Source: Halobacteriovoraceae bacterium (lineage in GTDB: Bacteria > Bdellovibrionota > Bacteriovoracia > Bacteriovoracales > Bacteriovoracaceae). Taken from it: a DNA stretch of 34,354 bases. The DNA lies in assembly GCA_002715375.1 (NCBI GenBank), contig PAZA01000061.1:1-34354 (forward strand), written 5' to 3'. The notes under the pieces are model-generated. The model was given only the letters and a program-made list of their open reading frames with translations. It ran no database searches and was not told the origin of the DNA. The position numbers and the translations under genes are program-made. Shown in pieces: positions 16,698 through 28,616 of this stretch (position 1 is its first letter; each line of letters begins with the position of its first letter).

Positions 16698-19283
16698 ATG
16701 ACGTCTAATCCTTTTAAGGGAAAACAAGTGGCTGTAGAAAGAAAAAAACGGATCAAAGTAAAAGACGATGATAAGGGTTCAATTTGGACCTCATATAGCG
16801 ACCTTTTTACTGCTGTAGCAATTATATTCCTTGTCATGTTCGTTTTTGCACTTCTAAGAACAAGTGTCATGAGCTTAAAAGCAATAAAGGAAACAAAAGA
16901 ACAAAAAGAATATTATGAAGGTAAAGTTTCTGAAAAAACTCAGAAAGAGAATGAGGAAAGAAAAAAGAGATTAAAACTTGCTGTTAATGAAATGAAAGAT
17001 TTTGATGATGTTATTTCAAAGAAAATGAAAGAGCTAAACAAATTCAGTAAGAAAATGGCAAGTCATAAAGTTGATATTGAAAAGTTACTTAAAGATCAGA
17101 CTATAAAAGATGAATCTCTAAAATTTATGAATGCTAAAGTAACCAAAAAAAATGAAGAAATAAAAAAGCTTAATAAAAACTTGGAAAACCTTGATAAAAT
17201 TCTCGATAAAAAAACTGTCGATCTTAATAGAAAGATTCGGAATATTAAATATATAGACCAAGAAAATAAAAATTTAAAAAGAGATGTAAAAGATAAACAA
17301 AAAAGAATTGCTGATATAAAAAAGACTATTGATAAAATAAAAAATGAAAATACAAAAGAGGTTTCTAAATTAAAGCAACAGATAAATAAAGAGAAAAAGA
17401 GCCTTTTAAGCTATCAGAAGTCAGTAAAATTTCTTAAAATTAAAAACCAGGAAAAGTCTTCAAAAATAATAGACCTTAAAAAATCCATTAGCTTGTTTGA
17501 AAAAGAAGTTCAGAAAAAGAAAAAGGAAATTGATTCTATAAAAGTTAATATGGATTTGGCCAAAGCGTTGTCTAAAAAATCACAAAGCAATATGGAAAGA
17601 ACTCAAGATAGCCTTGCTAAAAGCCAAAAGAGAGAAAAATCCTTAAAATCAAAAATTAAATTACTAACGAGTAATCTCAAAAAAATAACTACAAACCTCA
17701 GCTCACTCAAAAAAGACCTCAACTCACAAAAAAGTAAAACAGTTAAGGTTCAAGGTAGATTTTTGGCATCTACAAAATCTAATTCCGAACTCAAAGGAAA
17801 AATTAAAGATTTCCAAAATAAAATGAGGAATCTTAATGATCAAATGCTACAAGGCCAAAAATCATTTAATCAAAAGCTTGCTTCAAAAAATAGTGATCTT
17901 AAAAACGCACAATCAAAAATAACTAGCCTCAATTCAATTATTAAGGGGCTAGAAGGCAAAGTTTCTTCTTCTAAAAGCGCTCAGTCTGATTTGCAATCAA
18001 GTCTTGCCGCGGCCATGGGTCAACTTTCCAACTCGAAAGGGGAAAATGGCAAGTTAAGAGGTACTATTAATAGCATGAAAGGGGCCATAGAGGGTTTCAA
18101 AAATCAAATATCTGGACTTAATAAAAGCAATGGAATGAAACAAAAAAATATTGCTGCCCTAAGTTCAAGCATAAAAAAATGTGAAGTTGATAGTGATAAA
18201 AAGGATCAATTGATCGTAAATAAAAACCGTCAAATTCAATTCCAAAATGATAACAATACAAAGCTTAGTGACAACAACAACAATCTTAAAAATAACAATA
18301 AAAAGCTAATTGACGATAATACAAAACTTATTAATGAAAACAAAGATCTTGCTAAAAATAATAAATCTAATTTAAAAGAAATAGATAAAATAAAAAATGA
18401 AAATGAAAAACTTGTCCTTAACAATAATAAACTGAAAAACAAAATCGCTTCACTTGAAGACGTTGGTGATGATTTCAAAAGAGAAATAGCGAATTTAAAA
18501 ACTGAATCTAACAATAAAGATAATGAAAATAAAAAGAAAGATAAGGATATTGATTTATTAAAGACTGCTAACAAAGCGAGCAATGACAAGGTTGAAGTCC
18601 TTAAAAAGAAAAACAACGTTCTTTTGGCTAAAATTGATAATTTAAGGAAAGATTTTAATAAACTCGCAAGTAACCCATTTAAAGCACAAGATGATTTTAG
18701 AAAAGATTTAGGAAATAATATTGCCAAGAAAATGGCTAAATATAACGTCCAAACAGAAATGGATAAGAGGACGGGTAATATCACGCTTAGGCTGGATGGG
18801 ACTTTTCTTTTCAAAAGAAACCAATCAGTCTTAACTAATGTTGCTAAATCCACTTTAAGAAAGATAATACCTATTTACACATCAGAAATTTTTAAATCTA
18901 AGAAAATTAGAAACAACATAGATCAAGTTAATATTATTGGTCACGCAAGTCCTCGCTATAAAAGAAAATTTGCTGACCCCCAAGGTAAAAATACAGTGGC
19001 CTATAATTACAATTTAGACCTAAGTACTGCCAGGGCCAAAGAAATTGTAAAGTTCATTTTCAGTAAACGATTTGGTGGCTTTAAATATAAAAATGTCTTA
19101 AGAGAAAAGATATCGGTCATGGGGAAAAGCTTTTCAGAACCAATAAAACTAAAGCCTGGCTCTAAGAAAGACCCAACTTGTGGGGTCTATAACTGTAAGC
19201 TTTCTAGAAGAGTTGAAATTAAATTTACAATGAAAGATAACCCAAGATTTTATAAAAAATTAAATTTCCTCCACAAGGATTAA
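16698..19283 (+). CDS. MotB-like protein with giant coiled coil
   Basis: This 861-residue protein looks like the stator/peptidoglycan-anchor half of an ion-driven motor. A basic cytoplasmic N-terminus (1-29) leads into one TM helix, WTSYSDLFTAVAIIF. Its Asp35 aligns with the proton-carrying Asp32 of E. coli MotB (WKIAYADFMTA). Residues about 60-655 are Lys/Asn-rich coiled coil, including ten near-perfect heptads (517-586). The C-terminal domain (about 690-855) is OmpA/MotB-like: IIGHAS (about 747), YNLDLSTARAKEIV and RRVEIKF. The usual Asp after GHT is absent (GHASPRY), and CGVYNC could form a disulfide. Its stop abuts the MotA/ExbB-like gene. The start has no good ribosome-binding site. The exact function is unknown. 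Confidence 0.82.
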   Translation: MTSNPFKGKQVAVERKKRIKVKDDDKGSIWTSYSDLFTAVAIIFLVMFVFALLRTSVMSLKAIKETKEQKEYYEGKVSEKTQKENEERKKRLKLAVNEMKDFDDVISKKMKELNKFSKKMASHKVDIEKLLKDQTIKDESLKFMNAKVTKKNEEIKKLNKNLENLDKILDKKTVDLNRKIRNIKYIDQENKNLKRDVKDKQKRIADIKKTIDKIKNENTKEVSKLKQQINKEKKSLLSYQKSVKFLKIKNQEKSSKIIDLKKSISLFEKEVQKKKKEIDSIKVNMDLAKALSKKSQSNMERTQDSLAKSQKREKSLKSKIKLLTSNLKKITTNLSSLKKDLNSQKSKTVKVQGRFLASTKSNSELKGKIKDFQNKMRNLNDQMLQGQKSFNQKLASKNSDLKNAQSKITSLNSIIKGLEGKVSSSKSAQSDLQSSLAAAMGQLSNSKGENGKLRGTINSMKGAIEGFKNQISGLNKSNGMKQKNIAALSSSIKKCEVDSDKKDQLIVNKNRQIQFQNDNNTKLSDNNNNLKNNNKKLIDDNTKLINENKDLAKNNKSNLKEIDKIKNENEKLVLNNNKLKNKIASLEDVGDDFKREIANLKTESNNKDNENKKKDKDIDLLKTANKASNDKVEVLKKKNNVLLAKIDNLRKDFNKLASNPFKAQDDFRKDLGNNIAKKMAKYNVQTEMDKRTGNITLRLDGTFLFKRNQSVLTNVAKSTLRKIIPIYTSEIFKSKKIRNNIDQVNIIGHASPRYKRKFADPQGKNTVAYNYNLDLSTARAKEIVKFIFSKRFGGFKYKNVLREKISVMGKSFSEPIKLKPGSKKDPTCGVYNCKLSRRVEIKFTMKDNPRFYKKLNFLHKD
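18246..18455 (+). repeat. Ten 7-residue (21-base) heptad units
   Basis: Within the MotB-like gene, residues 517-586 read as consecutive heptads such as NDNNTKL, SDNNNNL, KNNNKKL, IDDNTKL and INENKDL. Leu (once Ile, once Asn) occupies every seventh position, and Asn/Lys fill the rest. The regular spacing points to a zipper-type coiled coil and perhaps to recent repeat expansion. Confidence 0.75.
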
Positions 19284-20228
19284 ATGATGACTGATTTGTT
19301 AGGCATTGCCCTTAATTTTTTTTCCAGTTACCTCATTGAGGTAATGGGAGTACTCCTTGTTCTAGGTCTCATTTTTAGGGCCGCCTCTTATAAGCTAAGT
19401 AAAAGAGAGGATGCCTATTTCTCTTCTTTTATTAGTGAAGTTGAAAAAGCTCTTTCAGCTTCAACCAACGATAAGGAGGAAGTAGAGGATGTCGACCACT
19501 TTCTTGATACTGTCTTAAAACAAGTCTCTGACAAGCTCCCTACAAGGAGTGTTCGATACGGAAATTTTAGCCGAAAAAAAGAAGAAAAGGATAAAGAAAA
19601 GATAGAAAAGTCAGCAGCAAAATCTATAGCTCGGCATAAAAAAACCGTCTCCTTAAGAGACTTTGTCCATGGTGAAAAAAGTCTTTTTCATTCAATAAAA
19701 GGTGAAGCAAGTATTTTTAAGTCTAAATACCCACCAAACTTTGATGATTTAACAGATAGAATTCTTGAAAAAGACCCTAACTGGAATAAACTTCTCAATT
19801 TTTTTCCGGTAGCACCTATTTCTAGACTTAATGATATCCTTCCAGGGCTTTTTGTTGTCTTTGGAATTTTCGGGACATTTATCGGGATTAGTATGGCCCT
19901 TCCAAAAATCGCGGCCATAGATTTTTCAAATATTGAAGCTTCTGGAGCTATCCTTCAGGAATTTGTTCTAAATATTGCCTTTGCAATGAAAACATCTATA
20001 GCCGGTATCCTCTTTTCACTTATTACGACGGTTCTCAATACAATGGCACCTGTTGGTGGTTTAAGAGAAAAAACCTTCAAAAAGTTATCGACAAGCTTTG
20101 AAGAAATTTGGAATGCTATCCACGGGTCTAAGTCCATTGAAGCGTCCTTGCAGGAATCTTTACCTGGACTTCTAAATGAAGTTAAAAGAATAAATAGTTA
20201 TATAGAAGAACAAAATAAAGCATCTTGA
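19284..20228 (+). CDS. MotA/TolQ/ExbB-like motor protein
   Basis: This 314-residue inner-membrane protein is the likely ion-channel partner of the MotB-like protein before it. It has three membrane segments: about 5-34, 186-206 (LPGLFVVFGIFGTFIGI) and 228-252 (NIAFAMKTSIAGILFSLITT). A charged cytoplasmic domain (35-180) sits between the first two, the ExbB/TolQ plan rather than the four-TM MotA plan. Thr198 in GTFIG and Thr237-Ser238 match the polar ion-path residues of the family. A short helical tail follows. The ATG directly follows the upstream TAA (a second ATG at 19287 has better spacing from AAGGAT), so translation is coupled. The AF-TSIAG pattern also occurs in ZorA, but the long ZorA tail is missing. 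Confidence 0.85.
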   Translation: MMTDLLGIALNFFSSYLIEVMGVLLVLGLIFRAASYKLSKREDAYFSSFISEVEKALSASTNDKEEVEDVDHFLDTVLKQVSDKLPTRSVRYGNFSRKKEEKDKEKIEKSAAKSIARHKKTVSLRDFVHGEKSLFHSIKGEASIFKSKYPPNFDDLTDRILEKDPNWNKLLNFFPVAPISRLNDILPGLFVVFGIFGTFIGISMALPKIAAIDFSNIEASGAILQEFVLNIAFAMKTSIAGILFSLITTVLNTMAPVGGLREKTFKKLSTSFEEIWNAIHGSKSIEASLQESLPGLLNEVKRINSYIEEQNKAS

Positions 20229-20268
20229 ACTTGATGAAGTTTTGGTTTAAAAAACAGGGGTTCTTAAT

Positions 20269-20763
20269 ATGAGCTTTCTTGCTAACCTAGTCAAAGGATG
20301 CCCCCTCTTTTTAGAGATCTATGATGAAGAGGTGGAAGAAGTTATTCAAGCTTGCGAAGTCGCTACTTTTAAAAGAGGCGAGCATATAATTCATCAGGGA
20401 GAGGAAAGCTCTGATATAGCCATCATTTTAGATGGTTGCGCTGATGTTATTATTAAAGACCAATTTGGAAAAATGAAAGTTATTACCCAACTTGTAAAAG
20501 GCGATCTCTTTGGAGAGCTTGTTTTAATAAATGAGACTAAAAGAACAGCTGATATCGTTGCCAAGGAGGAAACAAATATCCTTATCATAAGTTATGAAAA
20601 CTTTTACTCATTCTACAAAGATAACCCAAAAGTTTTTGCTCTTATGGTACTGAATGTAACGAGGATGGTAACTCAAAGGCTTAAATCGGCCAATGGAATC
20701 ATCAATAATTTATCTCATGAACTCATGGAGTTAAAAAGTGAACTCCATAAGAAAGCTTCTTAG
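20269..20763 (+). CDS. Stand-alone cyclic-nucleotide-binding protein
   Basis: This 164-residue soluble protein is a single Crp-type cNMP-binding domain. The N-terminal helices (PLFLEIYDEEVEEVI) lead into the beta roll, with the phosphate-binding cassette FGELVLINETKRTA (Phe81-Gly82-Glu83, Arg92). Glu and Arg contact the ribose and phosphate in true cAMP/cGMP binders, so ligand binding is plausible. A C-terminal helix (125-164) has no helix-turn-helix or enzyme domain, so it would act by protein contact. It starts 40 bases after the ExbB-like gene with AGGGG upstream, in the same direction, suggesting it belongs to the motor operon and may regulate it. The ligand is not predictable. Confidence 0.85.
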   Translation: MSFLANLVKGCPLFLEIYDEEVEEVIQACEVATFKRGEHIIHQGEESSDIAIILDGCADVIIKDQFGKMKVITQLVKGDLFGELVLINETKRTADIVAKEETNILIISYENFYSFYKDNPKVFALMVLNVTRMVTQRLKSANGIINNLSHELMELKSELHKKAS

Positions 20764-20774
20764 ATAATAAAAAG

Positions 20775-20990
20775 CTAGAACTTGAGGAGGTCTGGGGTTG
20801 GGCCTTCACATTTTTCTTTTTTTTCATCACTGCATTGATCTTTTTTTTCACAAAACATGCAATCGTCACCAAGGACCTTGTTAAGACCACCACAGCTTCC
20901 TTTTAGCTTTTTGTTGCTAAAGATAACTCCAACTGCCATTCCTACGATGGTCAGTAACATCACTCCCAATGTAATTAAGAAAAGTTTCAT
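20775..20990 (-). CDS. nqrM: Na+-NQR maturation protein NqrM
   Basis: NqrM (DUF539) is needed for Na+-NQR assembly, probably delivering iron to the NqrD/NqrE cysteine site. The 71-residue protein has one N-terminal TM helix, the family signature KGSCGGLNKVLGDDC, and further cysteines (CMFCEKKDQC), all expected metal ligands. I chose the ATG at 20988-20990 because the family begins near this hydrophobic stretch and GAGG lies 12 bases upstream. An in-frame ATG six codons earlier (21008) has no ribosome-binding site. It follows apbE on the minus strand, the usual place after nqr genes, and converges with the cNMP-binding gene, leaving an 11-base gap. Confidence 0.88.
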   Translation of the reverse strand: MKLFLITLGVMLLTIVGMAVGVIFSNKKLKGSCGGLNKVLGDDCMFCEKKDQCSDEKKEKCEGPTPDLLKF

Positions 20991-21053: not shown

Positions 21054-22163
21054 TTAGTTAAAATAATCACCTAACAATATTTTTAATTGTGTTGAAGCCT
21101 TTTTTTCAAAGAACCTCTTTTGACCCCTCTCATTGCTCGGGACAGTTATAAAATAGGCCAAAAGGCCGTTTTTTTCAGCAAACTCAAGCCCTTTTTTATA
21201 ACCCATTACCATAAGTGCGGTTGCTAAGGCATCTGCTTTCATACAAGAGAATCGGTCAAAAACTGTCACTGAAGCTAAACGGTGTTTAACTGGATGGCCA
21301 GTCCTGGGATCTATTGTATGGGAAAAAGACTTTCCATTAGACGTAAAGTAGTTACGATAATTTCCGGAAGTCGCCATAGCAAGGGTATTAACTCCAATAA
21401 TCTTATGAATTGATTGGCCAATTGTTGAAGGAGATTCAATGGCCAAACGCCATGGCCTTCCTTTTTTACTTCCGCTGGTTTTTATTTCTCCTCCGATTTC
21501 AACCATATGATCCGCAAACCCAAAACCAGAGAGAAGAGCGCTCACCTCATCAACCGCAAAACCTTTGGCAATTGCAGAAAGGTCCAGGTAGACGCCTTCT
21601 TTACCTTTAAGTTTTTTTTCAACTTCTCTCATTATCACATGATGATAACCAACACGGTCACGAGTTTTCTTTAAGTCCTCGCTAGAAGGTATTTTCCTCT
21701 CACCATTGGGACCAAACCCCCATAAATTAACAAGAGGGCCAACAGTTATATCAAAAGCACCATCAGTCATCTCATATATAGCTTTAGCTTCTTTCAGGAC
21801 TTTAAAAAGACGCGGAGAGAGAGCATGCCACTTCTTACCATTATTAGAAGAGTTAATAAGAGATAATTCGGAGTCAGGCATATAGGTAGACATCTCTTGA
21901 TTAATTTTTTTAAGAAGCTCGTCAATGAGGGCCTTCACTTCCTGTGGCTTTTTTTGACTCCTCTCTTTTGAGTCTGTTAAGTCTGGAAAGTACCTAACCG
22001 TATAGGTTGTCCCCATTGTTCTACCAAAAAGGCTTTTAGGCTTTTTGACCTCTTCCTTGCACCCAGAGAAAGAAGCCCCTAAACAGAGGATTAATATACG
22101 TATAAAAAAAAAGCCTAAGGATTTCCTTAGGCTTTTTATTATTGGTCTTTTAAATTGATTCAT
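21054..22163 (-). CDS. apbE: FAD:protein FMN transferase, lipoprotein ApbE
   Basis: ApbE covalently attaches FMN from FAD to a Thr of NqrB and NqrC. The 369-residue protein has a lipoprotein-type signal (hydrophobic 18-29, FSGC with Cys35), then family motifs: GRTMGTTYTV, DGAFDITVGPLVNLWGFG, DLSAIAKGFAVD, EIGGEIKTSG, ATSGNYRN and SHTIDPRTGHPV. It therefore acts on the periplasmic face, where the NQR flavin sites are loaded. It starts 11 bases after nqrF. The first 22 codons contain the perfect terminator hairpin at 22104-22137 (encoding KSLRKSLGFFF), and no other ATG, GTG or TTG precedes the lipobox, so the gene must be read through that terminator or from an internal promoter. Confidence 0.93.
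   Translation of the reverse strand: MNQFKRPIIKSLRKSLGFFFIRILILCLGASFSGCKEEVKKPKSLFGRTMGTTYTVRYFPDLTDSKERSQKKPQEVKALIDELLKKINQEMSTYMPDSELSLINSSNNGKKWHALSPRLFKVLKEAKAIYEMTDGAFDITVGPLVNLWGFGPNGERKIPSSEDLKKTRDRVGYHHVIMREVEKKLKGKEGVYLDLSAIAKGFAVDEVSALLSGFGFADHMVEIGGEIKTSGSKKGRPWRLAIESPSTIGQSIHKIIGVNTLAMATSGNYRNYFTSNGKSFSHTIDPRTGHPVKHRLASVTVFDRFSCMKADALATALMVMGYKKGLEFAEKNGLLAYFITVPSNERGQKRFFEKKASTQLKILLGDYFN
22104..22137 (-). terminator. Intrinsic terminator of nqr operon inside apbE
   Basis: AAAAAGCCTAAGG (minus strand, 22137-22125), loop AAAT, then CCTTAGGC (22120-22113) and nine T (22112-22104) form a perfect 13-bp stem with a strong U tract, about 40 bases after the nqrF stop. It lies entirely within the start of the apbE coding sequence, so it can limit apbE expression relative to nqrA-F. 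Confidence 0.9.
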
Positions 22164-22174
22164 TTCTAGAAAAC

Positions 22175-23398
22175 CTAGCCCCCAAAGTCGTCGAGCATAA
22201 TATCGTCCCGCTCTACCCCTAAGTCAAGGAGCATATCAATGACACATTTATTCATAATTGGTGGCCCACAGAGGTAATATTCACAATCTTCAGGTGCTGG
22301 GTGGTTTTTTAAGTACTCATCATGCAGGACATTATGAATAAAGCCTGTATAACCTTTCCAATCGTCTTCTGGAAGAGCATCTGAAAGGGCGCAATGCCAC
22401 TCAAAGTTTTCATTCTCAGCTTGAAGTTCATCAAAGTCCTCAACAAAGAACATTTCGGCTTTTGATCTTGCTCCGTACCAAAAAGTCATCTTTCTATCTG
22501 TCTTAATTCTTCTAAGTTGATCAAAAATATGGGACCTCATGGGCGCCATACCGGCCCCCCCACCAACGAAAACCATCTCTTTTTTAGTTTCTCTCGCAAA
22601 GAACTCTCCAAAAGGCCCTGAAATAGTCACATCGTCACCAGGTTTAAGCCCAAAAATCCATGAAGACATTTTCCCTGGTGGGATGTGTTTTGGAGCTCCA
22701 GGAGGAGGACTCGCCACCCTTACGTTAAGCATAATAATTCCATGCTCTTCGGGGTAATTGGCCATTGAATAGGCCCTAATAACTGTTTCGTCTGTATGAG
22801 AGACATTATCCCAAATTTTAAAATGATCCCAAGTTCCTCTATAAAGCTCAGGAATATCAAAGTTCTTATAATCTACGGTAATCCCAGGGGGACGCTCAAT
22901 TTGGATATAACCTCCGGCCCTAAAAGGGACAGACTCACCATCTGGAATTTCCAAAATGAGGTTTTTAATGAAGGTGGCTACGTTATCATTGGAGCGGACT
23001 TTACACTTCCACTTCTTAACACCGAAAACTTCTTCAGGTACATTAACCTTCATATTAGACTTAACAGCGACCTGGCAGGAAAGACGGCAACCTTCTTTAA
23101 CCTCTTTCTTTGTCATATGGGACAGTTCTGTCGTCAAGATTTCACCACCACCATCGAGGATATCGACTTTACACTGCCCACAGGTTCCACCACCTCCGCA
23201 AGCTGAAGAAACATAGAGTTTTTCATCGGCCAAAACATTTAAAAGTTTTCCACCAGCAGAAACCGTGACATCTTTTTTACCGTTGATGTTAATGACAACA
23301 TCACCAGAGTTAACTAGCTTAGATTTAGCAAACAAAATAATCGCGACCAAAGCCAAAACAATGCCGACGAAAACAGACGATGCAATGAGAATTTCCAT
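22175..23398 (-). CDS. nqrF: Na+-NQR subunit F (NADH dehydrogenase)
   Basis: NqrF takes electrons from NADH into the Na+-translocating complex. The 407-residue protein has an N-terminal TM anchor (about 4-24), a 2Fe-2S ferredoxin domain with ligands Cys67, Cys73, Cys76 and Cys108 ([12 protein letters not shown] and KEGCRLSC), an FAD-binding domain with RAYSMANYP, and an NADH-binding domain with [15 protein letters not shown] and CGPPIMNK. Length and C-terminus (MLDDFGG) match the family. It is the last of six nqr genes. A 52-base gap separates it from nqrE, and it is followed by a terminator that overlaps apbE. The ribosome-binding site is weak (GAGAG). Confidence 0.97.
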
Positions 23399-23450: not shown

Positions 23451-24071
23451 TTAGAGTTGAATCCCAGAAAAAGCTAAAAACCCTAAAGACATTAGCCCTA
23501 CTGTTATAAATGTGATCCCAAGACCTCTTAGACCTTCCGGAATATCACTATAAGTTAACTTCTCTCTAATTCCTGCAAGGGCCATGATTGCAAGTGCCCA
23601 TCCAACTCCTGTCCCCAAACCAAAAACAACACTTTCAGGAAAGTTGTAATCCCTTTCAACCATAAAAAGAGAGCCTCCTAAAATGGCACAGTTTACAGTA
23701 ATGAGAGGAAGGAAAATCCCTAGTGCTCCATAGAGGGCGGGAAAAAATTTATCCAATGTCATTTCTAAAATTTGAACCATGGCCGCGATAACGCCAATAT
23801 AGCTAATCAACCCCAAAAAGCTCAGGTCCATTGAAGCAAGCTCCGGGTTACCAGTCCACGCTAACGCCCCAGGCTTTAAAAGATAACCATAAATAAGGTT
23901 ATTGGCCGGAACTGTAATTGTTTGAACCACAATAACCGCAATCCCTAATCCAATAGAGGTTTTTACCTGTTTTGAAACGGCTAAAAACGTACACATCCCT
24001 AAGAAAAAACCAAGGGCCATATTTTCAACAAAGACGGCTTTTATAAATATGCTAATATACTGTTCCAACAT
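23451..24071 (-). CDS. nqrE: Na+-NQR subunit E
   Basis: NqrE is a six-TM inner-membrane subunit that pairs pseudosymmetrically with NqrD. Together they hold an iron-sulfur centre in the membrane and help form the Na+ path. The 206-residue protein has the family segments [20 protein letters not shown] (Cys27) and [13 protein letters not shown] (the second Cys), the two ligands expected from this subunit, and [22 protein letters not shown]. The start is three bases after the nqrD stop, so the two are translationally coupled. Length matches the family. Confidence 0.97.
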
Positions 24072-24074
24072 AGA

Positions 24075-24695
24075 TTAATCCTTTTCAACTTGATCAGGTT
24101 TAAAAGTCCTTAAAACCCAGATAAAAACCCCTATTAAGAAAAAAGCACTCGGAGCAAGTAACATTAAGCCGTTACCCTGATACCAACCACCTTCACTTGT
24201 AAGAGGTAATACAGAATAACCAAAGAACTTACCACTCCCGAAGATCTCTCTTAGGACTCCAACAAAGATTAAAACGAGGCTGTAACCTAAGCCGTTTCCA
24301 ATACCATCCATAACGCTCATGAAAGGGCCATTCTTCATAGCATAACCCTCTGCGCGACCCATAACAATACAGTTGGTTATAATCAAACCAACGTATACTG
24401 AAATCCCCTTAGAAATATCGTAGACAAAAGCTTTCAAAATTTGGTCAGCTAAAATAACCATCGAAGCAATGACAGTCATTTGAACAATAATCCTAATACT
24501 TGAAGGAACATAGTTTCTGATCAAACTAACAATCAAACTGGAAAACGCCATAACGAAGATAACGGCTAAAGACATAACAATAACGGCTTCCATTTTAGTC
24601 GTTACCGCTAGGGCAGAACATATTCCCAAAATTTGAAGGGCGATAGGATTGTTTTTAAATACAGGATCAAAAAGGGTTTCTTTTATACTGCTCAT
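24075..24695 (-). CDS. nqrD: Na+-NQR subunit D
   Basis: NqrD is the six-TM partner of NqrE in the Na+-pumping quinone reductase. The 206-residue protein shows [18 protein letters not shown] (Cys26) and [17 protein letters not shown] (the second Cys), the two ligands for the shared intramembrane iron-sulfur site, and the [23 protein letters not shown] segment typical of the family. The ATG lies two bases after the nqrC stop, with GGAGGAG overlapping the end of nqrC, which indicates coupled translation. Confidence 0.97.
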
Positions 24696-24697
24696 TT

Positions 24698-25477
24698 TTA
24701 AGCTCCTCCCTTTCTAAACTGAACCAGAAATGGTCCGTAACCATGGTCACCTAGCCAGTAGTTTAGAAGGTCTTGGACACCTCGGCCCGTAATCGTAGCA
24801 CCGGAAAGTCCATCAACTGTTCTCTTTCCTTCTTCACTATTCGGATCAACATTTTTTTTAACTTGAACAAAAGGCTTAAAACTTTTGTCAGAGACAATTT
24901 TTCCTATCCACTGGGCCTTCCAATTTGGATTGTCGACTTCTCCTCCTAAACCCGGAGTTTCAGCATGCTCATAAAACCCAAAACCTTTCACTGTTCTCGT
25001 ATCTTTGTCCAAAGCCAAAAAGCCGTAAAGAGTCGACCAGAGACCTTTTCCATAAACCGGCAAAACAAGAGATGTAACTTTGCCATCCTTTTTCACAAAA
25101 TAAACTTTTCCATATTTTGCTCTCATTTTATTCTTGCCTAGATCCAAATTAGAAGGAATTTGAACATTCCTTTTTGGGTCCTTAGCAGCTGCCCGAGAGT
25201 CATAAGATTCTGGTTTAATATCTGCTACAAATTGTCCGGTTTTTAGATCAACCAGCTTTGTTTCAATATTTTCAAAAATTTTTAAAATTTCTTCTTTCGA
25301 TGCTTTGGCATTTTTTAAAAGACCAGCTGAAAGAAGAAGATTTTTCTTAACATCAAGAATTTTATTTTCTTTCTGCATAGGCCTTAAGCTAATGGCCGAA
25401 AGTGAAACGACCACTGAACACACACCACATAAAATTGCCGCAACAGCAACTGTCCCCTTCCAAGAATTAATGTTCAT
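24698..25477 (-). CDS. nqrC: Na+-NQR subunit C, covalent FMN carrier
   Basis: NqrC carries covalently bound FMN on the periplasmic side and passes electrons within the complex. The 259-residue protein has one N-terminal TM helix (about 8-30) and a periplasmic domain with [17 protein letters not shown] and the flavinylation motif [14 protein letters not shown], in which Thr228 of SGAT is the expected FMN site. ApbE, encoded downstream, is the transferase. The gene overlaps the end of nqrB by 11 bases and has a strong ribosome-binding site (AAGGAGGG, 9 bases upstream). Confidence 0.97.
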
Positions 25478-26672
25478 GTCTTAGGGCCCTCCTTTTGATA
25501 TTGGCTTCAACAACGAAGTAATCGATGAGAGGTGCAAACAAATTGGCAAAAAGAATTGCTAGCATAATCCCTTCAGGGTACGCAGGGTTCACAACTCTTA
25601 CTAATATTGTCATCACGCCAATGAGCGCTCCATAAAAATATTTACCAGTTGCCGTCATAGAGGCACTCACTGGATCTGTTGCCATAAAGACTGTACCGAA
25701 AGCAAATCCACCTAAACAGAGGTGCCAGAGAGGATCCATTCCAAACATAGGGTTTGTCGTCGACCCGATCTGATTAAAAAGGAGTGCCGTTAGAACCGCC
25801 GAGACCACAACCCCTAGCATAATCCGCCAAGAACCAGTTTTAGTAACTATCAAAATAAAGGCACCAATCAGACAAGCTAAAACAGAAGTCTCCCCCATTG
25901 AGCCTGTAATATCACCCATGAATGCTTGATTTAAAGTAAAGGGAATTGCGCTTACGCCTTCAGCAGCGGCGAGACCCAAAGAAGTTGCAGCAGTATAACC
26001 GTCAACGGCTACCCAAACAGCATCACCTGAAATTTCAGCGGGGTAAGCGAAGTAAAGAAAAGCTCTCGAAGCCAGAGCAACGTTAAGGAAATTCTTCCCC
26101 GTTCCTCCAAACACCTCTTTCGCAAAAATAACACCAAATATAATTCCCAGAGCAACTTGCCACAAAGGAATGGTAGCAGGAAGAGTTAAAGGATAAAGAA
26201 GCCCACTAACTAAAAACCCTTCATTAATTTCGTGCTTCCTCACAGTAGCAAAGATGCCTTCAACAATTCCTCCCGCAGTCATTGTCACTATGTAGACCGG
26301 TAGAAAGAATAAAGCTCCATAAACAAAGTTACTTAAAAAGTTATTGGGATCAAAAGCTAATCCCATGGCTGCCATAACAGCTCCCCTCCAATCTTCAACC
26401 GTGGCAAGCCCTTTGGAAGCTAAGACGAGGTTTGCTTGGTAGCCTGTATTCCACATGGCCATCAAAGTCACAGGTATAAGAGCTATAACAACTGTCACCA
26501 TCAACCGCTTTAGGTCCATCCCATCTCTTACATGGGTTTTCCCTTCCGTAACCTCTCCAGGTGTATAAGCAAAGGTATCCAAGGCTTCATATAGAGGATA
26601 AAGTTTTTCCAACTTACCACCCTTAGAAAACTTTGGATGCATTTGATCAAGGAAATCTCTAAGTGCTTTCAT
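25467..26672 (-). CDS. nqrB: Na+-NQR subunit B
   Basis: NqrB is the largest membrane subunit and contains a covalent FMN, riboflavin, quinone access and the main Na+ path. The 401-residue protein has about 10 TM helices and family motifs [38 protein letters not shown] and FMATDPVSA. The flavinylation site is VDGYTAAT; Thr232 (counting from a start two codons earlier) is the expected acceptor, though TAAT departs from the usual SGAT. I chose ATG 26670-26672 because AAGGA lies 6 bases upstream; the earlier ATG at 26678 directly abuts that site and overlaps the nqrA stop. About three bases separate it from nqrA. Confidence 0.96.
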
Positions 26673-26674
26673 TA

Positions 26675-28018
26675 TCATTCCTTCTCAATAATAGTTAAAT
26701 TATCTCTTAATATCGTTCCATAATCGACTTTGCCATGATCGACAAAAGTACAAAGGGCCAAGTCTTCTTCATCGAGCTCCATACAGCCAAGTTTTTGAGC
26801 AAGGTCCGTTTGTTTTGTTATAAGGGATCTGAGAAGTTGAGTGGCCAATATATCCATTGGCATAACATCCTCATAATTACCTGTCGGAACCATGGCCCTG
26901 GGGCTTCCATGGGTCGATGTTGTAAAGTCAAACAACTTTGCAGGCAATAGCTTTGAAATGAAAGAAGGCTTTACTGAAAATTTCTCCAATCCAGGTCCAC
27001 CCCACCCTAGGAGCTCCCTTTCTTTTCCTTCCTTGAGAAGGCTAATTTGATTGTGATACCTTCCTAAATAATTAAATGTGTCTTTAGCATGGTGCCCATT
27101 AAAGACAGAGCCAGAAATCACCCGATTATCTTTACCTTCATATTCATCCTTCAAAAGGTCAGCTAAGCTCGCTCCAACTCTGGTGACAAGCAGCCTCGGG
27201 TTTCTAGCTTGGGGACCACCAAGGGCCACAATCCTTTCTGTCCAAAGTTTTCCTGTAGAAAAAAGTTTTCCTACAGCAATGCAATCTTGATAACCGATAT
27301 GCCATACAGGCTTATCGGCATGAGCCGGGTCTAAAAAGTGGATATGAGTTCCAACATTTCCAGCTGGGTGAGGTCCTTCAAAACCATGAAGGCTTATAGG
27401 GCCAGATGCTTCAACCGGAAGACTCTCACCTTTTGCATGACAGACGTAAGTTTTTCCTTCCGTTAATTTAGAAAGTACTTTGACACCATTTTTGAAATCT
27501 TCTTTATGGTTATTGATTACAGAAATGGGATTCCCAGAAAGTGGATTTGTATCAATCGCTGTTATAAAAAGAGCTTTTGGTCTTGACTCAGGAAGAGGGT
27601 TTTTTGAATAAGGTCTCGTTCTAAGTGCAGTCCATAATCCGGACTCTTGAAGAAGGTCTCTAACCTTTTCAAATCCTATTTTGTCTAAGTCACTTTTTTT
27701 GTAATGAGAAAACTCAACTTGTTCCTCACTTGAAGAAATCTGTATAACAAGTGACTCAAAAACTCTTTTGGGACCACGGTTTAAGGACACCACTTTTCCT
27801 GCAGCTGGAGCCGTGTATTTAACTCCAACTTGTCTCTTACATTCAAACAAAGGTTGTCCAATTTTAACTTCATCGCCCTCTTTTACCAACATAGTTGGCT
27901 TCATTCCTTGGTAATCAGACCCTAAAATGGCAACAGACTTTACACTCTTGTTTCTATCAACCTCAGATTTGGGTTGCCCCTTGATTGGAAGAGTTAAACC
28001 CTTTCTAATTTTTGTCAT
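26675..28018 (-). CDS. nqrA: Na+-NQR subunit A
   Basis: NqrA is the peripheral cytoplasmic subunit of Na+-NQR and contacts NqrB near the quinone site. The 447-residue protein starts with the family N-terminus [13 protein letters not shown] and contains [23 protein letters not shown] (a biotinyl-like fold), [47 protein letters not shown] and [13 protein letters not shown], all typical. It is the first gene of nqrA-F. The upstream ribosome-binding site is weak (GAAAG). A 124-base gap to the ychJ-like gene upstream probably contains the operon promoter, though I see no clear -35/-10. Confidence 0.96.
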
Positions 28019-28142
28019 AACGCTTTCAAACCCTGTTGAAATTTTTTATTGTTTCTTTCTATCTATTCTAGTCTAGTTTATCTATTTTTTCTCTATGCAC
28101 TATTTTCTTCTACCTACTGAATTAAGTCCAAGAAGGAAGCTT

Positions 28143-28616
28143 TTAATGGCAACATTTCTTAAACTTTTTTCCACTCCCGCAAGGACATGGGTCATTCCTG
28201 CCTACTTTAGGTACAATTCTTTTTTGAGTCGTAGGTTCGAGCTTACCATCGTAGAAGTACCAACTCCCTTTCCATTTCTTAAAAGTGCTTCTTTCTCTAT
28301 GAATATGAGTTTTATCATCAAGCTCATAGGTGCACTCAAATAAAACTTCTCCCTCATCTTTCTGTTCAGACGATTCGAGGATTCTCAAACCAAACCACTC
28401 TGACTCAGAAGCCCAACTCTCTGCCTCATCCTGATCAAACCCGTCAACTTTATCAGGATGATGAGTTTTCATAATAAAATCAATATTATTTTTTACGTAA
28501 GCAGAGTAGCGTGCCCTCATTAAACTTTGAGGGTTTTTTGCACTTTGAAAGTCTTTGTGGATAGGACCACAACATTCGTTATACTGCTGCGCAGACTGGC
28601 AAGGACAGGCTTCCAT
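28143..28616 (-). CDS. YchJ/UPF0225 family SEC-C protein
   Basis: This 157-residue protein has a zinc-binding SEC-C-like motif at each end: [14 protein letters not shown] at the N-terminus and the perfect [18 protein letters not shown] at the C-terminus. The middle ([23 protein letters not shown]...WYFYDGKLE) is the NTF2-like domain of the YchJ/UPF0225 family. The biochemical role is unknown; SEC-C motifs bind zinc and, in SecA, SecB and the ribosome. Upstream of the ATG I see no good ribosome-binding site. It reads in the same direction as nqrA with a 124-base gap, and downstream of the MATE gene by 134 bases, so it is probably its own unit. Confidence 0.88.

What the first reader, a model, noticed from the sequence alone, without database searches (positions are those of the whole stretch)
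22104..22163. nqr operon terminator embedded in the apbE signal-peptide codons
A perfect 13-bp stem with nine U lies within apbE codons, encoding KSLRKSLGFFF, and no alternative start codon precedes the lipobox. Every full-length apbE message from the nqr promoter must escape this terminator. Catalytic apbE would thus be kept low relative to the stoichiometric NQR subunits, a neat dual use of terminator sequence as a signal-peptide coding region.
Basis: partly seen in the sequence, partly recalled or inferred. Interest (0 to 1): 0.52.

Follow-up and report, generated by a model that had tools for sequence, protein, structure and literature searches.

The report
Transcription stop inside a signal peptide
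At the end of the genes for a sodium-pumping respiratory enzyme, the "stop copying" signal is written inside the first codons of the next gene, which encodes a helper enzyme, and unrelated versions of the same trick recur in two groups of bacteria, probably so that less helper than enzyme is made.

Summary
The hairpin is real. On the minus strand, 22137-22104 carries a perfect 13-bp stem, a 4-nt loop and a run of nine T (five of the nine lie in the stem's 3' arm). It sits in codons 9-20 of apbE, whose only usable start is the ATG at 22163. It looks like a strong, conserved intrinsic terminator placed after nqrABCDEF and before apbE-nqrM. In the sister species it is the longest identical run in apbE (40 nt). 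Across the family (Bacteriovoracaceae), 23 of 50 nqrF-apbE junctions carry a terminator inside apbE signal-peptide codons, with different sequences and several registers to the lipobox. Ten more carry it just before the start. Synonymous recoding expects about 1 hit in the open apbE frame; 29 were observed. Other nqr junctions have almost none. A Methylococcales sample shows the same layout in 17 of 19, with compensatory stem changes that alter both encoded amino acids. So the RNA hairpin itself is selected. Best reading: the nqr terminator is partly read through, holding maturation genes apbE and nqrM below the structural subunits, while its stem and U-tract double as signal-peptide codons. 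Expression effects are inferred, not measured. New variant of internal-operon terminators.

The parts
22125..22137 (-). 5' arm of terminator stem (AAAAAGCCTAAGG), apbE codons 9-13
22121..22124 (-). terminator loop AAAT
22108..22120 (-). 3' arm of terminator stem (CCTTAGGCTTTTT)
22104..22112 (-). run of nine T (U-tract); the first five also form the 3' side of the outer A-U pairs; encodes Phe18-Phe20
21054..22163 (-). apbE, FAD:protein FMN transferase; lipoprotein; start ATG at 22163, 11 nt after the nqrF stop codon
   Evidence: PF02424 E 3.8e-92; only start upstream of the lipobox
22059..22070 (-). lipobox FSGC of ApbE (Cys35 at 22061-22059)
   Evidence: pattern match; lipidation not tested
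22175..23398 (-). nqrF
   Evidence: TIGR01941 663.6 bits, cutoff 295
23451..28018 (-). nqrE, nqrD, nqrC, nqrB, nqrA (23451-24071, 24075-24695, 24698-25477, 25467-26678, 26675-28018)
   Evidence: NCBIfam equivalogs above cutoff
20775..20990 (-). nqrM, NQR maturation factor, second gene downstream of the terminator
   Evidence: PF04400 E 5.1e-07, 29.8 bits against cutoff 22

Best explanation
The hairpin is the intrinsic terminator of the nqrABCDEF operon, positioned about 38 nt past the nqrF stop codon. Part of the transcription stops there, giving an abundant mRNA for the six stoichiometric subunits. The remaining fraction reads through into apbE and nqrM, which make maturation enzymes needed in small amounts. 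In this and many related loci apbE has closed up against nqrF, so the terminator stem and U-tract have been taken into the apbE reading frame. The U-tract supplies Phe/Leu codons and the GC-rich arms supply Gly/Ala/Leu/Ser/Lys codons, which a lipoprotein signal peptide tolerates. SHOWN: the sequence, the forced overlap, conservation, recurrence, and selection on base pairing. INFERRED: termination, its partial efficiency, and the lower dose of ApbE and NqrM. It is also inferred that a ribosome that starts apbE promptly after nqrF would cover the 5' arm and favour read-through.
For: Terminator anatomy and fold. Sister species L047: nqrF differs at 138 of 408 third positions and apbE is 842/1113 identical, yet the longest identical run in apbE is the 40 nt of hairpin + U-tract; 5 of 1071 36-nt windows are 100% identical, all there. 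Junction scan in the family: nqrF>apbE 30 of 48, against nqrA>B 1/67, B>C 0/70, C>D 1/71, D>E 1/73, E>F 4/75, apbE>nqrM 1/39. At a stricter cutoff it is 30/48 against at most 2/75. Codon control: 29 of 50 adjacent apbE frames hold a terminator, 1.18 expected by synonymous resampling and 6.71 by permuting the codons; 0.2-1.2 expected by resampling across four settings. apbE copies not next to nqrF: 0 of 5. In all 22 embedded family loci with a lipobox, any start in or after the hairpin leaves at most 9 residues before Cys. Covariation: Methylococcales helix 98.8% paired, 5 pairs with two-sided changes, 0 of 500 shuffles as high; family register B 100% paired, 3 pairs changed on both sides. Compensations such as P>L with G>S, V>A with T>A, V>I with T>M, and L>F with A>T.
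Against: No RNA data. 17 of 50 family loci with adjacent apbE, and 9 of 29 gammaproteobacterial ones, have no called terminator, so the device is dispensable. The permuted-codon control expects 6.71 of 50, well above the resampled 1.18. In L269 the helix is kept by compensation but the U-tract is interrupted, so termination there is doubtful. nqrF genes without adjacent apbE also carry a terminator (17 of 26), so the primary role may be plain 3'-end formation and the dose effect on apbE a by-product. The caller is home-made.
Confidence: 0.78

Rival explanations
1. Translation-gated terminator: the deciding event is whether a ribosome finishing nqrF re-initiates at apbE and reaches the 5' arm before RNA polymerase completes the U-tract. 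Read-through, and thus ApbE and NqrM output, reports translation of nqrF rather than being a fixed fraction.
For: apbE start 11 nt after the nqrF stop in the window, and TTG immediately after the stop in all 12 rows of A1. The hairpin begins 10-48 nt after the stop in 22 of 23 embedded loci. Embedding puts the terminator under apbE ribosomes, which an intergenic terminator is not.
Against: Intergenic terminators, most at a similar distance, occur in 10 of 50 loci, so ribosome gating is not needed for the location. Coupling of transcription and translation in these bacteria is unknown.
Confidence: 0.25
2. Plain 3'-end formation of the nqr mRNA. The hairpin protects the nqr message and ends transcription, apbE being expressed only by incidental leak; embedding is a neutral consequence of genome compaction.
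For: 17 of 26 nqrF genes without adjacent apbE also have a terminator, mostly at a similar distance.
Against: In embedded loci the helix is kept by amino-acid-changing double substitutions although apbE must be read through. apbE is required for NQR maturation (PMC12052999, passages), so the leak has to be sufficient and is probably tuned. This differs from the best explanation mainly in whether the leak is selected.
Confidence: 0.3
3. Chance by-product of a Phe/Leu-rich signal peptide (codons that give U-tracts) with no RNA function.
For: Signal peptides supply U-rich codons; permuting existing codons still yields 6.71 of 50.
Against: Resampling gives 1.18 expected against 29 observed. Lipoprotein-like ORFs elsewhere in three genomes: 0 of 33. 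apbE not next to nqrF: 0 of 5. Covariation.
Confidence: 0.02
4. The helix acts in the mRNA of apbE (RNA stability or slowed translation) rather than in termination.
For: L269 keeps the helix with a broken U-tract.
Against: By the caller's definition a U-tract follows in all 23 embedded family loci, and terminators of the same kind sit outside apbE in 10 loci. The hairpin starts 26 nt after the start codon in the window, beyond the usual initiation region (general knowledge).
Confidence: 0.07

Closest known systems
Internal intergenic terminators that set stoichiometry in operons (ABC importers of cellulolytic Clostridia, PMC9045158; archaeal ioTTS, PMC10450193)
   Same: A terminator inside a gene cluster reduces expression of downstream genes relative to upstream ones.
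   Different: In the passages read, those terminators lie in intergenic regions. Here the terminator is inside the downstream gene's signal-peptide codons and codes for protein.
E. coli frd operon terminator / ampC attenuator overlap (recalled; no source text read here)
   Same: One terminator ends an upstream operon and attenuates the next gene.
   Different: Recalled as lying in the ampC leader, not in its coding sequence.
Ribosome-mediated attenuators (trp type; general knowledge)
   Same: A terminator hairpin under the influence of a translating ribosome.
   Different: No separate leader peptide and no alternative antiterminator fold seen; the translated stretch is the enzyme's own signal peptide.
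ORF-internal 3' ends mapped in E. coli (PMC7815308)
   Same: Premature 3' ends inside coding sequences.
   Different: The abstract start and passages seen name Rho termination and sRNA-linked fragments; they describe no operon terminator shared with a signal peptide.

Membership tests
Intrinsic (Rho-independent) terminator | Stable GC-rich stem with short loop | tested here: met
   13-bp perfect stem with 5 G-C pairs, 4-nt loop; region z -3.79
Intrinsic (Rho-independent) terminator | U-tract directly after the stem | tested here: met
   nine T at 22112-22104
Intrinsic (Rho-independent) terminator | Ends transcription | not testable with these tools
   no RNA data
Internal-operon terminator tuning stoichiometry | Lies between same-strand genes of one pathway | tested here: met
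   nqrA-F upstream, apbE and nqrM downstream, all on the minus strand
Internal-operon terminator tuning stoichiometry | Lies in an intergenic region | tested here: not met
   inside apbE codons 9-20; no later start
Internal-operon terminator tuning stoichiometry | Partial read-through, fewer downstream transcripts | not testable with these tools
   no RNA data
Ribosome-mediated attenuator | Mutually exclusive antiterminator hairpin | tested here: inconclusive
   the minimum-energy fold of 22200-22098 shows no strong competing helix; a single fold only
Known regulatory RNA (Rfam 15) | Match above a family's gathering score | tested here: not met
   0 matches in the window
ApbE FAD:protein FMN transferase | ApbE domain | tested here: met
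   PF02424 309 bits; NCBIfam PRK10461 equivalog below its cutoff, 241 against 498
ApbE FAD:protein FMN transferase | Lipoprotein signal with lipobox Cys | tested here: met
   FSGC at residues 32-35 by pattern; processing not tested

The most novel reading that the evidence does not exclude
A signal peptide used as a regulatory leader. The terminator is written into the signal-peptide codons so that translation (and perhaps membrane targeting) of the nascent ApbE decides whether RNA polymerase continues into apbE and nqrM. Maturation-factor synthesis would thus be tied to active translation of the NQR subunits. The arrangement arose several times in at least two bacterial phyla.
Probability: 0.2. 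Interest if true: 0.82.

Novelty: new variant of a known kind. Interest (0 to 1): 0.6.

Why it matters
It is a clean natural case in which one stretch of DNA is under strong selection both as an RNA terminator and as protein code, with double substitutions that keep the helix at the price of two amino-acid changes. It gives a concrete rule for how the NQR pump could keep its maturation enzymes substoichiometric. It suggests that lipoprotein signal peptides, which tolerate Phe/Leu/Gly-rich sequence, are natural hosts for terminators when operons close up. It also warns that gene finders and terminator predictors which exclude coding sequence will miss such sites.

Tried and rejected
Rejected: a dispersed repeat or mobile element (one place in the genome at up to 3 mismatches); a known riboswitch or RNA family (0 Rfam matches); a tRNA-linked structure (0 tRNAs); a wrong apbE start (no start between hairpin and Cys); a chance product of codon usage.

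A separate apbE promoter: one weak match (TTGACT-17-GATATT, 22227-22199, minus strand) lies upstream of the hairpin, so its transcript would still cross it. Six matches were found against 7.0 expected by chance in the region. No promoter match was found in 27900-28400, so the nqr promoter was not located.

Limits: the careful tree did not finish, and the quick tree was used. It needs 11 changes of the label 'embedded', at least 5 forced by well-supported branches; these may be gains or losses. The class labels (embedded / intergenic / none) were assigned by me by reading (family; Gammaproteobacteria). The general 5'-end control used plain longest ORFs, not curated genes.

Literature: paper searches listed nothing describing an nqrF-apbE terminator or a terminator inside signal-peptide codons.

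Full report
WHAT IS THERE. On the minus strand, nqrABCDEF (28018-22175) is followed 11 nt after the nqrF stop codon by apbE (22163-21054; PF02424) and then nqrM (20990-20775; PF04400). At 22137-22104, inside apbE codons 9-20, lies a 13-bp perfect stem with an AAAU loop and a run of nine T, of which five belong to the stem's 3' arm. Folded with its surroundings it is 3.8 standard deviations better than shuffles. It has no other copy in the genome. The apbE ORF has one start upstream of the hairpin, and none between the hairpin and the lipobox Cys35. Any full-length apbE message, from any promoter upstream, therefore crosses the hairpin.

WHOSE GENOME. The window is a whole 34-kb contig of a 2.64-Mb assembly that is 72% complete.

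CONSERVATION IN THE SISTER SPECIES. Window against L047: nqrF differs at 138 of 408 third positions and apbE is 842/1113 identical. The 40 nt of hairpin + U-tract are the longest identical run in apbE (next 29). All 5 of 1071 36-nt windows that are fully identical lie there.

RECURRENCE IN THE FAMILY. nqrF was found in 77 of 129 family genomes. I read 76 junctions: the window plus 75 loci, leaving out G101, whose contig ends inside nqrF. apbE lies within 500 nt downstream in 50 of 76. By my reading, 23 of these 50 have the terminator inside apbE signal-peptide or N-terminal anchor codons, 10 have it before the apbE start, and 17 have none called. The 23 come from 11 genera (handles). Hairpin sequences and registers differ. 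From the end of the called stem to the Cys codon it is 47 nt in the window's genus (two loci), 10-17 nt in eleven loci, and 29 nt in L099. In seven loci (L098, L104, L105, L107, L108, L110, L112) the lipobox Cys codon overlaps the end of the 3' arm, and in L117 it lies inside the hairpin. L093 has no lipobox. On the quick tree the label needs 11 changes, at least 5 forced. Of the 26 junctions without adjacent apbE, 17 still have a terminator.

CONTROLS. With the same caller, terminators within 160 nt of the upstream stop are: nqrA>B 1/67, B>C 0/70, C>D 1/71, D>E 1/73, E>F 4/75, nqrF>apbE 30/48, apbE>nqrM 1/39. A dG cutoff of -10 gives 0, 0, 0, 0, 2/75, 30/48 and 0/39. Synonymous resampling of the open apbE frame upstream of the ApbE domain expects 1.18 of 50; 29 were observed (23 embedded plus 6 in which the open frame extends upstream of the likely start). 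Permuting the existing codons expects 6.71. The 23 embedded loci alone expect 0.12-0.62 under four caller settings, with 22-23 observed. apbE genes not next to nqrF: 0 of 5. First 120 nt of ORFs in sampled stretches of three genomes: 0/306, 3/148, 2/142; lipoprotein-like ORFs 0/23, 0/4, 0/6.

OUTSIDE THE FAMILY. In gammaproteobacterial loci, apbE is adjacent in 29 of the 48 loci with a usable nqrF end. By my reading, 18 are embedded, 2 intergenic and 9 have none called. The embedded ones are concentrated in the Methylococcales sample, counting the two Methylococcales loci used to reach it (17 of 19); in the wider class sample it is 1 of 10. In the order sample (61 genomes) only the loci of the best 30 matches were read. 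Codon resampling expects 2.71 of 29; 19 were observed. Among named loci, Marinomonas has the terminator between the genes in 10 of 11 loci with adjacent apbE, and Methylotuvimicrobium buryatense 5G has it inside apbE. The Rhodobacterales, Azoarcus and Rhodocyclaceae loci have no adjacent apbE. Some Stutzerimonas loci have a weaker call (-9.3 kcal/mol) near the start of apbE that I did not classify.

SELECTION ON THE HELIX. In 12 Methylococcales sequences (alignment A1) the 14-pair helix is 98.8% paired. Five pairs changed on both sides (shuffled mean 0.7, 0 of 500 as high), and slid controls gave 0-2. In 7 family sequences (A2) the 10-pair helix is 100% paired with 3 such pairs (20 of 500 shuffles reach that count; 0 of 500 reach the covariation score). 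Several double changes alter both encoded amino acids: P>L with G>S, V>A with T>A, V>I with T>M, L>F with A>T. A pure protein constraint does not predict this. Results against: L269 keeps its helix but has an interrupted U-tract and is not called. In the third group (A3 loci, six sequences) I saw no clean two-sided compensation except at the outermost pair, and several pairs are broken in one sequence.

MECHANISM. Best reading: this is the ordinary terminator of the nqr operon, leaky enough to let a fraction of polymerases into apbE-nqrM, with its sequence recruited as signal-peptide code where apbE abuts nqrF. ApbE attaches FMN to NqrB and NqrC and is required for maturation (PMC12052999, passages). 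[quoted passage not shown] Both act on the complex rather than being parts of it, so a lower dose is plausible. Whether ribosomes entering apbE gate the terminator is open. Embedding makes it possible, but intergenic cases at a similar distance show that it is not required.

LITERATURE. Internal terminators that tune operon stoichiometry are known in intergenic regions (PMC9045158 and PMC10450193, passages). 3' ends inside ORFs are known in E. coli (PMC7815308, abstract start and passages). PMC12207403 (passages) and PMC13323073 (abstract) did not describe the overlap. Searches listed nothing on this junction. The library is limited to open-licence PMC papers.

Noticed in passing
L047-L121, after nqrM and after apbE: Hardly any terminator was called within 160 nt after nqrM (1 of 46) or apbE (1 of 48), so how the apbE-nqrM transcript ends is unclear.
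   Followed up: no
L259-L270 (alignment A1): In all 12 rows an in-frame TTG lies directly after the nqrF stop codon and is the likely apbE start, a weak start that suggests translational coupling.
   Followed up: partly
L167, L168, L170, L174 and other Rhodobacterales loci: NqrF of several Rhodobacterales is about 75% identical to the window's, as close as many members of its own family, which hints at horizontal transfer of nqr.
   Followed up: no
window 16698-20763 (+): An 861-aa protein that looks like a coiled coil, a 314-aa protein without a Pfam match and a cyclic-nucleotide-binding protein lie convergent to apbE-nqrM.
   Followed up: partly
L100, L103, L106, L111, L084: Family members in which apbE sits 1.1-3.4 kb from nqrF and carries no terminator in its signal-peptide codons.
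   Followed up: partly
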